Assembly (NCBI GenBank): GCA_021850345.1
Contig: JAJZMN010000147.1
Location: 1-5,748, forward strand
Source of the DNA: Actinomycetes bacterium
Lineage (GTDB): Bacteria > Actinomycetota > Acidimicrobiia > Acidimicrobiales > RAAP-2
Direction of reading: 5' to 3'
DNA length: 5,748 nt
Part shown: piece after piece, positions 1,759-5,748 of the stretch
How the letters are laid out: every line of letters starts with the position of its first letter
How positions within the stretch are numbered: the stretch's first letter is position 1
Position numbers and translations under genes: made by a program
The notes under the pieces: model-generated
Database searches by the model: none
Told to the model about the DNA's origin: nothing
The model's input: only the letters and a program-made list of their open reading frames with translations

Positions 1759-3894
1759 CTACTCGGCCTGCCCGAACGCCTTGATCTCCTCGGCCTCTTT
1801 CTCGGAGAGCTGCTTGGGGACCTCGCCTCGGGCCTGCTTCACCTCTTGGACGTGCGCGCGGATCTCCTCGACCACCTCGGGATTCGCGAGCGTCGTGATG
1901 TCGCCGACGTCGGTGAAGTTGGAGATGCCGGCGATGACCCGGCGCATGATCTTGCCCGAGCGGGTCTTGGGCATGTCCGGGACGATCCAGACGCTCTTCG
2001 GCCGGGCCACCTTGCCGATCTCGGTCTCGATGACCTTGGCGACCTTCTCTTCGACGTGCGATCCGGGCTCGACGCCCGGCTTGAGCGAGATGTACATCTC
2101 GACCGCCCGGCCGCGCAGCTCGTCGACCACCGGCACCGCGGCCGCCTCCGCCACCTCGTCGACGAGGAGGCTCGCCGACTCGAGCTCCTTCGTCCCGAGG
2201 CGGTGGCCGGCGACGTTGATGACGTCGTCCACGCGCCCGAGGATCCGGAAGTAGCCGTCCGCGGCCTGGGTGGCGCCGTCGTTCGCGAAGTACGGCCAGT
2301 CGTGCCAGTCGGTGCTCTTCGGGTCCTTGTTGTACTTGGCGTAGTAGGTCGACACGAACCGGTCCGGGTCGCCCCAGATGGTCTGGAAGATGCCGGGCCA
2401 GGGGTTGCGGATGCAGATGTTGCCCGCGCGGCCCGAGCCCTTCGGCACTTCCTCGCCGTTCTCGTCGTAGATCACGGGGTAGATCCCGAGCACCCCGGGG
2501 CCGGCGCTTCCCGGCTTCATCGGCTCGAGCCCGGGCAGGGTCGAGCACAGGAAGCCGCCGTTCTCGGTCTGCCACCAGGTGTCGACGATCGCCGCCTCGC
2601 CCTTGCCGACGACCTCGTAGTACCACCGCCAGACGTCGGGCTCGATGGGCTCCCCCACCGTCGTCATGTGCTTGAAGTGGTAGTCGTACTTCTTGGGCTC
2701 TGTGGGGCCGACCTTGCGGAGCATCCGGATCGTCGTGGGCGCGGTGTGGAAGATGTTGACGCCGAGGCGTTCGGCGATCCTCCACGCCCGACCCGGGTCG
2801 GGATAGGTCGGCACGCCCTCGTACATCACGCTCGTCGTCCCGAGCGAGAGCGGCCCGTAGACGATGTAGGAGTGGCCGGTGATCCAGCCGATGTCCGCTG
2901 CGCACCAATAGGTGTCCTCGGGGTGGATGTCCTGGTAGTACTTCGAGGTCCCCGTCACGTACGCCAGGTAGCCGCCGATCGAGTGCTGGCAGCCCTTCGG
3001 GCGCCCCGTGGTGCCCGAGGAGTACATGATGAACAGGGGCGCCTCGGCGGGCATCGAGACCGGGTCGACGGTCTTCCCCCGGTAGTTGTCCATGACCTCG
3101 TCGACGAAGAAGTCGCGCCCCTCCACCATCGGGAACTTCGAGGCGTACTGGCCGGGGTGGCGCCGGTAGACGAGGACCTTGTCGACTTCGTGGCCCTCTT
3201 CCTTGGCACGCTCGACCGCCTCGTCGGCCTTCTCCTTGTGGTCGAGCAGCGCGCCGCTGCGGTAGTAGCCGTCCATCGTGATGAGGACGTGGCTCTGGGA
3301 GTCCGAGATCCTCCCGCCGCAGGCCGCGCCGCTGAAGCCGGCGAAGACCTGGGAGTGGATGACGCCGAGGCGGGCGCAGGCGAGCATCACGACGGGGAGC
3401 TCGATGACCATCGGCATGTGGAGCGTGACCCGGTCGCCGGCCTTCAGCCCGCAGAAGTCCCGGAGCATCGCCGCGGTCTCGTTCACCCGCCGGTAGAGCT
3501 CGCGGTAGGTGACCGCCTGGGTCTCTTCTTCCTCGAGCTCGGGGACCCAGATGAGCGCCGCCTGGTTGGGGCGCGTCTTCAGGTGCCGGTCGACGCAGTT
3601 GAACGAGGCGTTCAGCTTCCCGCCGACGAACCAGCGCCAGAAGGGCGGGTTCGAGGTGTCGAGCGTCGTGTGCCAGTACTCGTCCCATGTGAGGAGGTCC
3701 GCGTACTCCTTGAAGCACTCGGGGAACTTGTCCTCGCTGAAGCGCTCCCGGATGGAGGGGTCGGACGCGTTGGCCTGCCCGACGAACCCGGGCGGCGGGT
3801 AGTAGAAGTTCTCCTCCTTCCAGTGGACGGCGATCTGGGCCTCGCTGACTTGCAGTTCCTCGGTTTCTTCGGCCGGGGTGGTCTCTGCCGTCAT
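1759..3894 (-). CDS. acsA: acetyl-CoA synthetase (AMP-forming)
   Basis: This cytoplasmic enzyme joins acetate to CoA using ATP, through acetyl-AMP (acetate--CoA ligase). The 711 residues carry the whole family signature in order: N-terminal FVGGKLNASFNCVDRH (about 89-104), ATP loop YSSGTTGRPKG (291-301), ADIGWITGHSYIVYGP (333-348), VGEPIEP (413-419), DTWWQTENGG (438-447), hinge and ribose-binding GRVDDVINVAGHRLGT (553-568), and PKTRSGKIMRR (642-652), whose Lys648 matches the catalytic lysine silenced by acetylation in Salmonella Acs. Trp441 and Val413 match the acetate-pocket Trp414 and Val386 of Salmonella, favouring acetate over longer acids. I chose the ATG at 3894 over the GTG at 3906 because a GGAGG sits 5 nt before it. 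It is about 60 residues longer than the E. coli enzyme, from both termini and an insertion near 520-532. It lies downstream of satP on the same strand. Confidence 0.97.
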   Translation of the reverse strand: MTAETTPAEETEELQVSEAQIAVHWKEENFYYPPPGFVGQANASDPSIRERFSEDKFPECFKEYADLLTWDEYWHTTLDTSNPPFWRWFVGGKLNASFNCVDRHLKTRPNQAALIWVPELEEEETQAVTYRELYRRVNETAAMLRDFCGLKAGDRVTLHMPMVIELPVVMLACARLGVIHSQVFAGFSGAACGGRISDSQSHVLITMDGYYRSGALLDHKEKADEAVERAKEEGHEVDKVLVYRRHPGQYASKFPMVEGRDFFVDEVMDNYRGKTVDPVSMPAEAPLFIMYSSGTTGRPKGCQHSIGGYLAYVTGTSKYYQDIHPEDTYWCAADIGWITGHSYIVYGPLSLGTTSVMYEGVPTYPDPGRAWRIAERLGVNIFHTAPTTIRMLRKVGPTEPKKYDYHFKHMTTVGEPIEPDVWRWYYEVVGKGEAAIVDTWWQTENGGFLCSTLPGLEPMKPGSAGPGVLGIYPVIYDENGEEVPKGSGRAGNICIRNPWPGIFQTIWGDPDRFVSTYYAKYNKDPKSTDWHDWPYFANDGATQAADGYFRILGRVDDVINVAGHRLGTKELESASLLVDEVAEAAAVPVVDELRGRAVEMYISLKPGVEPGSHVEEKVAKVIETEIGKVARPKSVWIVPDMPKTRSGKIMRRVIAGISNFTDVGDITTLANPEVVEEIRAHVQEVKQARGEVPKQLSEKEAEEIKAFGQAE

Positions 3895-3897
3895 GTT

Positions 3898-3904
3898 CAC
3901 CTCC
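3898..3904 (-). promoter_or_regulatory. acs ribosome binding site, decides the start
   Basis: On the minus strand GGAGGTG precedes ATG at 3894, with 5 nt between GGAGG and the ATG. The upstream in-frame GTG at 3906 overlaps this Shine-Dalgarno sequence and has no good site of its own, so the four extra residues it would add (MEVN) are most likely untranslated. Confidence 0.8.
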
Positions 3905-3927
3905 ACGTGGTCACGACCAGGGGTGCG

Positions 3928-4088: not shown

Positions 4089-4727
4089 TCACGCCCGGAC
4101 TGCCGGGAAGCTCATCGGCTTTCCGACGAAGAGGACGTGGCGTCCGGCCATGCCGTTCACGACGCCGGCCGCCGACGTGTACCACGCCGTCGCCGCGGTG
4201 ACGACGCCCACGATGCCCCCGGCCTTCACCAGGTTGGATGTGGAGGCGAAGTTGCCGATGAACAGGAGCAACTCGGTCACTTCCAAGGTGAAGAAGACGG
4301 CCAGCACCGCCTTGTTCACGAACAGGCTCCACAGGAGCATGTAGGTGTTGAAGATGAAGAAGGCGAGCAGGATCCAGCCCAGGTCGTTTGTGACCATGTG
4401 CCCGGTCGCGTGGCCGGTGCCCAGCATCACGTAGAGCCCGAGGCCGATCCAGAAGCCGCCGTACGTCGAGAACGCCGTCGACCCGAAGACGTTCCGGTTC
4501 TTGAACTCCCACATGCCGGCGAGGAGCTGGCACGCGCCGCCGTAGGCGAAGGCGTAGCCGAGCCAGTCGTTGCCGGTCCCTCGTGTCCAGCCCGCGTTGT
4601 GCGCGGACAAGAGGAAGGTGGTGAGTGCGAAGGCAGCCAGCCCGAGCGGTGCGGGATCGGCGACGGTGGGCGCGCCGACGATCTCCATCTGCTGCACGGG
4701 TCTGGTCGCTTCGAAGGTGGTTGCCAT
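4089..4727 (-). CDS. satP: acetate uptake transporter, GPR1/FUN34/YaaH (SatP) family
   Basis: This is a 212-residue inner-membrane protein that takes up acetate and related small carboxylates such as succinate. The family signature near the start of helix 1 reads DPAPLGLAAFALTTFLLSAH (24-43); the usual first residue is Asn, here Asp24. Other family landmarks are the HN pair (43-44), the GMWEFKNRNVFGSTAFSTYG stretch (71-90) and GFWIGLG. Six hydrophobic helices can be drawn: about 26-46, 55-74, 86-104, 115-136, 139-160 and 168-190. The protein is slightly longer than E. coli SatP (188) because of its N-terminal tail. The start is the ATG at 4727, behind AAGGAGG with an 8-nt gap; the frame stays open far upstream but has no comparable start. 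acs follows 194 bp downstream on the same strand, pairing uptake with activation. The upstream side holds a phased repeat array and a divergent kinase gene, which suggests regulated expression. Confidence 0.95.
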   Translation of the reverse strand: MATTFEATRPVQQMEIVGAPTVADPAPLGLAAFALTTFLLSAHNAGWTRGTGNDWLGYAFAYGGACQLLAGMWEFKNRNVFGSTAFSTYGGFWIGLGLYVMLGTGHATGHMVTNDLGWILLAFFIFNTYMLLWSLFVNKAVLAVFFTLEVTELLLFIGNFASTSNLVKAGGIVGVVTAATAWYTSAAGVVNGMAGRHVLFVGKPMSFPAVRA

Positions 4728-4735
4728 GTCGTGGC

Positions 4736-4742
4736 CCTCCTT
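4736..4742 (-). promoter_or_regulatory. satP: satP ribosome binding site
   Basis: On the minus strand AAGGAGG lies 8 nt before the ATG at 4727, a near-perfect Shine-Dalgarno sequence. It fixes the transporter start although the same frame stays open for hundreds of bases upstream. Confidence 0.85.
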
Positions 4743-4814
4743 CCCGCCGGTTCCCCGGACGGGCTCGATGCGAAGCAGCACCTCACAGGTCGTGCCCGTC
4801 CGGCCCCCTCCGGA

Positions 4815-4832
4815 GACCGTGCGACCACGGTC
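4815..4832. promoter_or_regulatory. 7-bp inverted repeat upstream of satP
   Basis: GACCGTG-CGAC-CACGGTC is a perfect dyad with a 4-bp centre, 88 bp before the satP start and just downstream of the predicted promoter. It could be an operator for a dimeric regulator or a leader hairpin. Each arm contains ACCGTG, close to the ACCGTT core of the nearby boxes but inverted. Confidence 0.35.
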
Positions 4833-4844
4833 CTGCCAGGGAGG

Positions 4845-4873
4845 ATCTTGGTGAAACCGATTGCACCGGACAA
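4845..4873 (-). promoter_or_regulatory. satP: possible satP promoter
   Basis: On the minus strand TTGTCC (4868-4873) and CAAGAT (4845-4850) are separated by 17 bp. The -10 resembles that proposed for acs (CAGGAT). This gives a leader of about 110 nt. The -35 is weak, as expected of a promoter that needs an activator, and the repeat array begins about 42 bp further upstream. This is a by-eye prediction. Confidence 0.35.
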
Positions 4874-4914
4874 GGCTCTTTGCGCCGGGATCGCCCGGAG
4901 GTGGCCGTCCGTCG

Positions 4915-4965
4915 CCGAACGGTCGCCACCCTGCGCCGAACGGTCGCTGTCGGGCGACGAACGGC
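4915..4965 (-). promoter_or_regulatory. three phased LytTR-type boxes, 21-bp period
   Basis: Read on the minus strand toward satP, ACCGTTCGG occurs at 4936-4944 and 4915-4923, and the near copy GCCGTTCGT at 4957-4965. Gaps between boxes are exactly 12 bp, so the period is 21 bp, two helical turns. The first two fit every position of [TA][AC][CA]GTTN[AG][TG], and the third misses only the first. The consensus and the 12-13 bp gap are what I recall for LytTR response regulators (AlgR/AgrA/LytR class). The neighbouring gene encodes a LytS-type kinase, the usual partner of such regulators. The site lies about 40 bp upstream of the predicted satP -35, where an activator could bind. Binding itself is inferred. 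Confidence 0.6.
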
Positions 4966-5019
4966 GCGGCCGCCCCGATCGGAGCGCGCCCGCCGAAAGG
5001 ATCGACACCTCCGAAGGCC
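4915..5019. repeat. six-unit short direct repeat array
   Basis: Plus-strand units begin at 4915, 4936, 4957, 4975, 4993 and 5011: CCGAACGGT, CCGAACGGT, ACGAACGGC, CCGATCGGA, CCGAAAGGA and CCGAAGGCC. Periods are 21, 21, 18, 18 and 18 bp. Similarity falls off toward the kinase side; the first three are the best copies. A very degenerate copy may lie in phase at 4894-4902. The array may be a regulator-binding cluster that grew by duplication. All periods are multiples of three, so a coding origin (a Pro-Phe-Gly repeat on the minus strand) has to be considered, but no start site supports it. Confidence 0.5.
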
Positions 5020-5075
5020 CCGCGACAGACCGAGGGGGCTGTGGAAGACTGCGGGGAGGGGCGCCGCAGCCCGCG

Positions 5076-5087
5076 GTGCCCGGGCAC
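5076..5087. promoter_or_regulatory. 12-bp perfect palindrome before kinase start
   Basis: GTGCCCGGGCAC is a perfect palindrome ending 12 bp before the proposed TTG start of the kinase gene. It may be an operator or may occlude translation. Its first three bases are also an alternative in-frame GTG start. Chance is possible in GC-rich DNA. Confidence 0.3.
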
Positions 5088-5099
5088 GGGGGCCGGCCA

Positions 5100-5748
5100 T
5101 TGGACGTCGCGATCTGGGGGGCGCTTGCCGGGGTGCTCGTGGTCGCTGCCGTGGTGGCGTGGTTCGCCCTGCGCACCGGTGGGCGGCTCGGAACGCCGAG
5201 CCAGCGGACCACCTACGAGACCCTGCACACCGCGAGCCAGGCTGCGCCCGGCCTGCGCGGCGGGCTCACGAGGCAGAGCGCGCAGATCGCCGTGCCCCAC
5301 CTCCGGCGTCTGCTCGGCGGCGGCGTCGTCCTCGCCGACCGCTCCGGCATCCTCGCCCTGAGCGACGTGGACACCGACCACAGCGCACTCTTGGAGGGGC
5401 CGCTCCACGCCGCCATCGCGACCGGCAAGGCGCAGGTGCTCTCGACGCGCCAGCTCACGTGCGGCGACTCTCTGTGCCCGCTCCAAGGTGGCGTCGTCGT
5501 GCCGCTCCGGGTCGACGGCGAGGTCGCCGGCGCGCTCGGGACGCTCGCCACGGTCACGTCGTCCGCGCTCGCCCGCCTCGCGACGGAGGTCGCCCGCTTC
5601 GTGTCCACGCAGCTCGAGCTCGCCGAGCTCGAACGTGAGCGATCGAGAGCCGACCAGGCGGAGCTCCGGTTCCTTCGTGCCCAGATCGCGCCCCATTTCG
5701 TCTACAACGCCCTCACCGCCATCGAGTCGTTCATCCGGACCGACCCCG
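5100..5748 (+). CDS. LytS-type sensor histidine kinase, 3'-truncated
   Basis: The frame is open to the right edge, giving 216 residues of the N-terminal half of a sensor kinase. Residues about 5-24 form one membrane helix (AIWGALAGVLVVAAVVAWFA). Residues about 35-152 look like a GAF-type sensor fold, with the strand-like pieces GGGVVLADRSGILAL and GGVVVPLRVDGEVAGALGTL and a Cys pair, CGDSLC (121-126). A charged helix (about 157-190) leads to LRFLRAQIAPHFVYNALTAI, the His_kinase (LytS/YehU) dimerisation motif, with phospho-acceptor His199. The ATP-binding domain lies beyond the window. Such kinases normally phosphorylate LytTR-type response regulators, often encoded next door. The start is uncertain: TTG at 5100 has a GGGGG 7 nt upstream and begins just before the helix; GTG at 5076 would add eight residues. 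It is divergent from satP across a shared control region, which suggests it controls that gene. The signal it senses is unknown. Confidence 0.88.
   Translation, partial: MDVAIWGALAGVLVVAAVVAWFALRTGGRLGTPSQRTTYETLHTASQAAPGLRGGLTRQSAQIAVPHLRRLLGGGVVLADRSGILALSDVDTDHSALLEGPLHAAIATGKAQVLSTRQLTCGDSLCPLQGGVVVPLRVDGEVAGALGTLATVTSSALARLATEVARFVSTQLELAELERERSRADQAELRFLRAQIAPHFVYNALTAIESFIRTDP

What the first reader, a model, noticed from the sequence alone, without database searches (positions are those of the whole stretch)
4915..4965. LytTR-type box array at exact 21-bp period between an acetate transporter and a LytS-type kinase
Seen: two identical 14-bp units (4913-4926 and 4934-4947) and a near copy at 4955-4968, all 21 bp apart; on the minus strand the cores are ACCGTTCGG, ACCGTTCGG and GCCGTTCGT. 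Known: LytTR regulators bind 9-bp direct repeats with 12-13 bp gaps, consensus [TA][AC][CA]GTTN[AG][TG]. Inference: the response regulator partner of the adjacent kinase binds here as an activator of satP. Sequence, spacing, orientation and gene context all agree without being chosen for each other. Three boxes rather than two would be unusual.
Basis: partly seen in the sequence, partly recalled or inferred. Interest (0 to 1): 0.75.

Follow-up and report, generated by a model that had tools for sequence, protein, structure and literature searches.

The report
Expanded repeat operator before acetate transporter
In front of an acetate-uptake gene sits a row of near-identical docking sites, spaced two turns of the DNA helix apart, most likely for the regulator encoded beside it; this bacterium and its close relatives carry about four to seven such sites where two is the usual number.

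Summary
The three minus-strand boxes with a 21-bp period are there, plus a fourth, weaker one at 4892-4902 nearer satP. In 12 of 12 close relatives (MAGs of one family) a response regulator follows the kinase, and 13 of 13 intergenic regions carry the array (0 of 1000 shuffles each). Eight more distant loci of the same family carry 2-5 boxes. Boxes lie 49/50 and 70/71 bp upstream of a conserved satP -35 in 20 of 21 loci, while their distance to the kinase varies. Spacers between boxes are near random (35% identity between loci; 31% expected), boxes are kept (77%). Ten of 11 relatives' genomes encode one LytTR domain only. Elsewhere in those genomes box pairs occur at control level. More distant Actinobacteria have box pairs before actP, satP or cstA. 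Best reading: operator of the adjacent two-component system, activating satP and probably acs. The new part is expansion from a canonical pair plus a weak third box to arrays of about 4-7 boxes by phase-keeping 21-bp duplication, with different copy numbers in sister genomes. Triple LytTR operators are known (RcoM1, CoxC). Binding and direction of regulation are untested.

The parts
4957..4965 (-). Box 3 (distal), core GCCGTTCGT; 91 bp upstream of the CTTG of the satP -35
4936..4944 (-). Box 2, core ACCGTTCGG; 70 bp upstream of the CTTG
4915..4923 (-). Box 1, core ACCGTTCGG; 49 bp upstream of the CTTG
4892..4902 (-). Box 0 (proximal, degenerate) ACCTCCGGGCG; its GGCGAT part is strongly conserved
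4868..4873 (-). Putative -35 of satP, TTGTCC
   Evidence: conserved in alignment A1 and at fixed register; not found by the sigma-70 consensus scan
4845..4850 (-). Putative -10 of satP, CAAGAT, 17-bp spacer
4089..4727 (-). satP, acetate uptake transporter (PF01184, NF038013), inferred target
1759..3906 (-). acs, acetate-CoA ligase, behind satP; inferred co-target
5100..5748 (+). LytS-type sensor histidine kinase (PF06580), cut by the window end; LytTR regulator follows in relatives

Best explanation
The array is the operator of the LytTR response regulator encoded just after the adjacent kinase. Shown by comparison: the boxes, their 21-bp helical phasing, their fixed register to a conserved satP promoter, and the pairing with the genome's (almost always single) LytTR protein. 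Inferred: the kinase senses acetate or a related carboxylate signal and phosphorylates the regulator; regulator molecules line up on one face of the DNA over the boxes at 49 and 70 bp (and 91 bp and beyond) upstream of the -35, with the weak box at 28, and recruit RNA polymerase to satP and probably acs behind it. The close clade expanded a canonical pair plus weak third box by in-phase duplication of the 21-bp unit; selection holds the box, the spacer drifts.
For: LytTR regulator after the kinase in 12 of 12 close relatives (domains). One LytTR domain in 10 of 11 genomes: in 9 on the array's contig, in G006 at the start of another contig, as expected if the gene is split there; G001 has two, each on the contig of its own array. 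Arrays in 13 of 13 close loci, 0 of 1000 shuffles each. Register 49/50 and 70/71 in 20 of 21 loci. Box columns 77% identical between loci, spacers 35%, 31% expected. Other genomic box pairs at control level, 25 against 25. Box pairs before actP, satP or cstA in other Actinobacteria with the related kinase and regulator. Position upstream of the -35 is the usual activator position of LytTR proteins (PMC11347149, passage).
Against: No binding or expression data. The promoter is not a consensus match and was recognised by conservation. L109 keeps boxes but lacks the promoter register; L004 lacks the CANNAT -10. Many boxes have GCT where the LytTR consensus has GTT (56% C at that column). Box columns are favoured because units were picked by box score. 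L015, L016, L023 and L025 have the kinase but no convincing boxes on the DNA held.
Confidence: 0.87

Rival explanations
1. Same operator, but the bound regulator represses satP, or chiefly controls the divergent kinase-regulator promoter (autoregulation).
For: The array lies between two divergent genes. CoxC is a LytTR repressor acting through three repeats that overlap its -35 (PMC11347149).
Against: No array box overlaps the putative -35; the nearest starts 28/29 bp upstream of it in 13 of 13 close loci. The register to the satP promoter is fixed, while the distance from the most distal chain box to the kinase start runs from 68 to 160 bp in 12 close loci and is about 1.5 kb in L009, where an insertion intervenes.
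Confidence: 0.09
2. The repeats are a neutral minisatellite with no regulator.
For: The whole 21-bp unit duplicates, spacer included: L004 has three identical units. Copy number differs between sister genomes.
Against: Spacers decay while boxes persist, the register to the promoter is kept in 20 of 21 loci, and box pairs recur before carboxylate transporters in other Actinobacteria.
Confidence: 0.02
3. The boxes are read by another direct-repeat binder (for example a BldC-like protein).
For: BldC binds direct repeats of varying number head-to-tail (PMC5859096, passages).
Against: BldC repeats there are AATTXXXX(C) in 9-bp sites; these boxes are GC-rich on a 21-bp period and fit the LytTR consensus. 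I did not search the genomes for BldC-like proteins.
Confidence: 0.02

Closest known systems
Canonical LytTR operator pair
   Same: 9-bp direct repeats, 10-13 bp gap (12 here), upstream of the -35 (PMC11347149 and PMC6193735, passages).
   Different: About 4-7 boxes instead of 2; core often GCT instead of GTT; conservation extends to 11 positions (RCCG[CT]TCG[GT]CG).
RcoM1 and CoxC triple-repeat operators
   Same: More than two LytTR repeats at two-turn spacing (PMC11347149, passages).
   Different: Repeat TTCNNGCA / TTNNNGCN, not found in this box; sensor and LytTR in one protein (CoxC); CoxC sites overlap the -35 and repress.
BtsS/BtsR and YpdA/YpdB of gamma-proteobacteria
   Same: LytS/LytTR pair switching on a carboxylate transporter (PMC5552118, passages).
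   Different: Pyruvate systems; kinases with a 5TM-5TMR_LYT domain, not detected here.
CrbS/CrbR (MxtR/ErdR) acetate system
   Same: Two-component control of acetate use, acs included (PMC5715377, PMC8402216; abstract starts in the listing).
   Different: CrbS is a hybrid kinase fused to an SLC5 domain.
BldC operators
   Same: Variable number of head-to-tail repeats (PMC5859096, passages).
   Different: Unrelated protein, shorter AT-containing repeat.

Membership tests
LytTR-type operator | 9-bp element matching [TA][AC][CA]GTTN[AG][TG] (consensus as given in the finding) | tested here: met
   Two boxes 9 of 9, one 8 of 9 in the window; in relatives many boxes carry GCT
LytTR-type operator | Direct repeats with 10-13 bp gap | tested here: met
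   21-bp period, 12-bp gap
LytTR-type operator | Located just upstream of a promoter | tested here: met
   Register kept in 20 of 21 loci; promoter itself predicted, not mapped
LytTR-type operator | LytTR-domain regulator encoded by the system | tested here: met
   12 of 12 close relatives; window cut before the gene
LytTR-type operator | Bound by the regulator | not testable with these tools
   Needs gel shift or footprint
RcoM1/CoxC operator | Repeat TTCNNGCA / TTNNNGCN | tested here: not met
   Box consensus RCCG[CT]TCG[GT]CG has C, not G, at the sixth position counted from the first T of the repeat
BtsS/YpdA-type kinase | N-terminal 5TM-5TMR_LYT domain | tested here: not met
   Only His_kinase and HATPase_c found in the L004 kinase frame

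The most novel reading that the evidence does not exclude
The array is an evolvable dial: a promoter repeat whose unit length (21 bp, two helical turns) lets slippage add or remove whole regulator sites without losing phase. As the genome usually holds one LytTR regulator and this looks like its only strong target, box number sets the threshold and steepness of the acetate response, and lineages tune it by copy number (4 against 6 between sister genomes).
Probability: 0.3. Interest if true: 0.6.

Novelty: new variant of a known kind. Interest (0 to 1): 0.42.

Why it matters
It offers a natural series (from 3 to 7 boxes on one homologous promoter) for asking what extra LytTR sites do: strength, cooperativity or threshold. 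It also ties a LytS/LytTR pair to acetate uptake in Actinobacteria. In the open-licence library only one paper holds both 'LytTR' and 'satP' (a Staphylococcus aureus cytotoxicity study by title) and one both 'LytTR' and 'acetate transporter' (a Geobacter evolution study; passages show no such link); wider searches with capped listings showed none by title. The motif allows the regulon (satP, DUF485-actP, cstA, MFS transporters) to be predicted across Actinobacteria.

Tried and rejected
Sigma-70 and terminator scan: nothing in 4700-5200. A wider regulon in the relatives' genomes: pair hits outside the arrays equal the control. An eighth L001 box (20-bp step, overlapping the -35) was not counted. 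Of the more distant kinase loci L032 and L039-L062, mostly Firmicutes, I scanned L032 and L039-L061 and saw only scattered chance-like chains. L061's three boxes lie inside a DUF1996 gene and were dropped. The three-box pattern matched 45 of 395 genomes of the class at up to 3 mismatches, many matches looking like coding or low-complexity repeats, and control hits occur too; I followed six places in five genomes only. PMC6222199, taken up for direct repeats, concerns an OmpR-family regulator. PDB search of the regulator: the 60 listed of 213 matches align essentially to the receiver part. Rfam: no match in L018, L019, L020, L024. No structure prediction, no homologous-protein search and no phage or plasmid search was run.

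Full report
What is there. On the minus strand the window holds acs (1759-3906) and satP (4089-4727); then comes a 372-bp intergenic region and, on the plus strand from a TTG at 5100, a LytS-type histidine kinase that runs off the window end. A fourth, weaker copy (ACCTCCGGGCG) lies at 4892-4902. The window's chain score of 16 was not reached in 1000 dinucleotide shuffles (largest 8). The scoring consensus was drawn from these sequences, which favours them; but outside the arrays of 12 relatives the best chain, with one box position loosened, also reached only 8 in 273,246 strand-bases.

The regulator. No whole genome is held for the window, so the gene after the kinase was read in relatives. 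One scan of genome contigs gave 62 loci; 12 are close (kinase 71-88% identical). One is titled Acidimicrobiaceae (L012); the genomes of the others came up in the family search around its genome. In 12 of 12 a homologue of one response regulator follows the kinase; in L006 the contig ends within it. It has Response_reg and LytTR domains in the two that I scanned (L004, L010). A LytTR search of the 11 genomes holding these loci found one domain in 10: in nine on the array's contig, in G006 at the start of another contig, as if the split gene continued there. G001, which yielded both L001 and L009, has two, each on the contig of its own array.

The array in close relatives. Thirteen of 13 intergenic regions (window plus 12) hold a chain with a 21-bp period (22 bp in one step of L004 and two of L010); in each, 0 of 1000 shuffles reached the score. 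Chain counts, weak proximal box included: window 4, L001 7 (8 as printed; the last, overlapping the -35, not counted), L002 6, L003 4, L004 6, L005 4, L006 4, L007 6, L008 4, L009 4, L010 5, L011 4-5, L012 4. They depend on a threshold of 8 of 11 positions. On the kinase tree L007 (6) and L008 (4) are sisters (100/96), and L004 (6) is sister to L003 and L005 (4 each; 100/96). L004 has three identical 21-bp units, spacer included, a sign of recent tandem duplication.

Box against spacer. In 62 units from 13 arrays (one weak distal L011 unit and the eighth L001 unit left out) the 11 box columns are 80% identical within arrays and 77% between loci; the ten spacer columns 41% and 35%, with 31% expected from composition. 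Units were picked by box score, so the box figures are favoured; the low spacer figure is not. Consensus RCCG[CT]TCG[GT]CG.

Register. A search of 172 genomes of the family found the kinase in 19, eight of them new (L104-L111, 61-67% identical). Boxes lie between kinase and satP in all eight: 3 in a chain in L106-L111 (two of them weak-thresholded to 2 at a score of 9), 4 in L105 and 5 in L104, where one step is 11 bp. Over all 21 loci, boxes lie 49/50 and 70/71 bp upstream of the CTTG of the putative -35 in 20; L109 is the exception. A 17-bp spacer and CANNAT follow in 19 of 21 (not L004, L109); the script allowed 16-18 bp and preferred 17. The proximal box is at 28/29 bp in 13 of 13 close loci. 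The most distal chain box is 68 to 160 bp from the kinase start in 12 close loci; in L009 an insertion of more than 1 kb intervenes. The array is thus anchored to the satP promoter. The pair at 49 and 70 is the conserved core; boxes at 91 and beyond belong almost wholly to the close clade (a weak one at 90 in L104).

Specificity. In the 11 genomes a box-pair pattern with up to one mismatch had 53 hits: 28 in these arrays and 25 elsewhere; the reversed control pattern had 25. No second strong target is visible.

Beyond the family. In other Actinobacteria the related kinase and regulator are usually followed by actP, often with DUF485 before it. Box pairs 21 bp apart lie upstream of a divergent DUF485-actP in 12 of 12 Arthrobacter-group loci (L022, L026-L031, L033-L036, L038), upstream of a second DUF485-actP in L013 and L014 (20 bp in L014), of satP-acs in the Nocardioides MAG L017 and of cstA in L037; in L018-L021 and L024 a pair follows actP with no gene downstream in the same direction. 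The motif used there was loose, and chains of similar score occur by chance; the shared position is the argument. L015, L016, L023 and L025 gave nothing convincing. From the class-wide scan, six places in five genomes were followed up: three boxes in front of an MFS transporter domain in G380, G371 and G357, a complex array before an MFS transporter and a box cluster after actP in G356, and three boxes between the related kinase and acs-satP in G470.

Mechanism. Shown: anatomy, conservation, register, pairing with a LytTR gene. Inferred: phosphorylated regulator binds the boxes on one DNA face and activates satP, and acs behind it. Placement upstream of the -35 is the usual LytTR activator position (PMC11347149, passage; compare the S. 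mutans systems in PMC6193735, passages). The signal is unknown; acetate is suggested only by the genes.

Relation to what is known. LytTR sites are normally pairs; RcoM1 and CoxC use three (PMC11347149). No paper describing a LytTR-controlled satP or actP, or a LytTR operator of four or more boxes, appeared in the searches, which cover open-licence PMC only, with capped listings. I call it a new variant of a known kind: an expanded operator whose copy number varies.

Limits. Close relatives are MAGs without stated completeness; G001 may be a mixed bin. Nothing here shows binding.

Noticed in passing
L018:10521-10770, L019:11029-11290, L020:11037-11320, L021:11046-11326, L024:10992-11263: After actP a LytTR box pair is followed by a conserved stretch with a G-tract (ACTCGGGGGGGTGG or similar) and, in L019-L021, a terminator-like hairpin, with no gene in that direction before a convergent gene: a candidate regulator-controlled small RNA. 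No Rfam match in the four of five loci searched.
   Followed up: partly
window 4728-4840, minus strand (satP leader): The satP leader can form a hairpin just upstream of the Shine-Dalgarno sequence and a competing longer one (4755-4768 with 4790-4803). Folding of five leaders was more stable than shuffles in three (z -2.7, -4.1, -2.9) and not clearly so in two (z -1.6, 0.35).
   Followed up: partly
L010:3947-5848, L011:4009-5955, L012:4048-5949: The acs beside satP is only 43-44% identical to the window's acs here, against 84-93% in the six other close loci with acs on the contig, although satP is 77-90% identical: acs seems to have been replaced while the pairing was kept.
   Followed up: no
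L009:5178-7001: About 1.4 kb lies between the array and the kinase, with a 370-aa frame without Pfam match and a row of short 15-bp repeats: an insertion that separates operator and kinase.
   Followed up: partly
window 5036-5055: A conserved motif CTGTGGAAGACTGC (plus strand) lies about 50 bp upstream of the kinase start in most of the 12 aligned relatives; function unknown.
   Followed up: no
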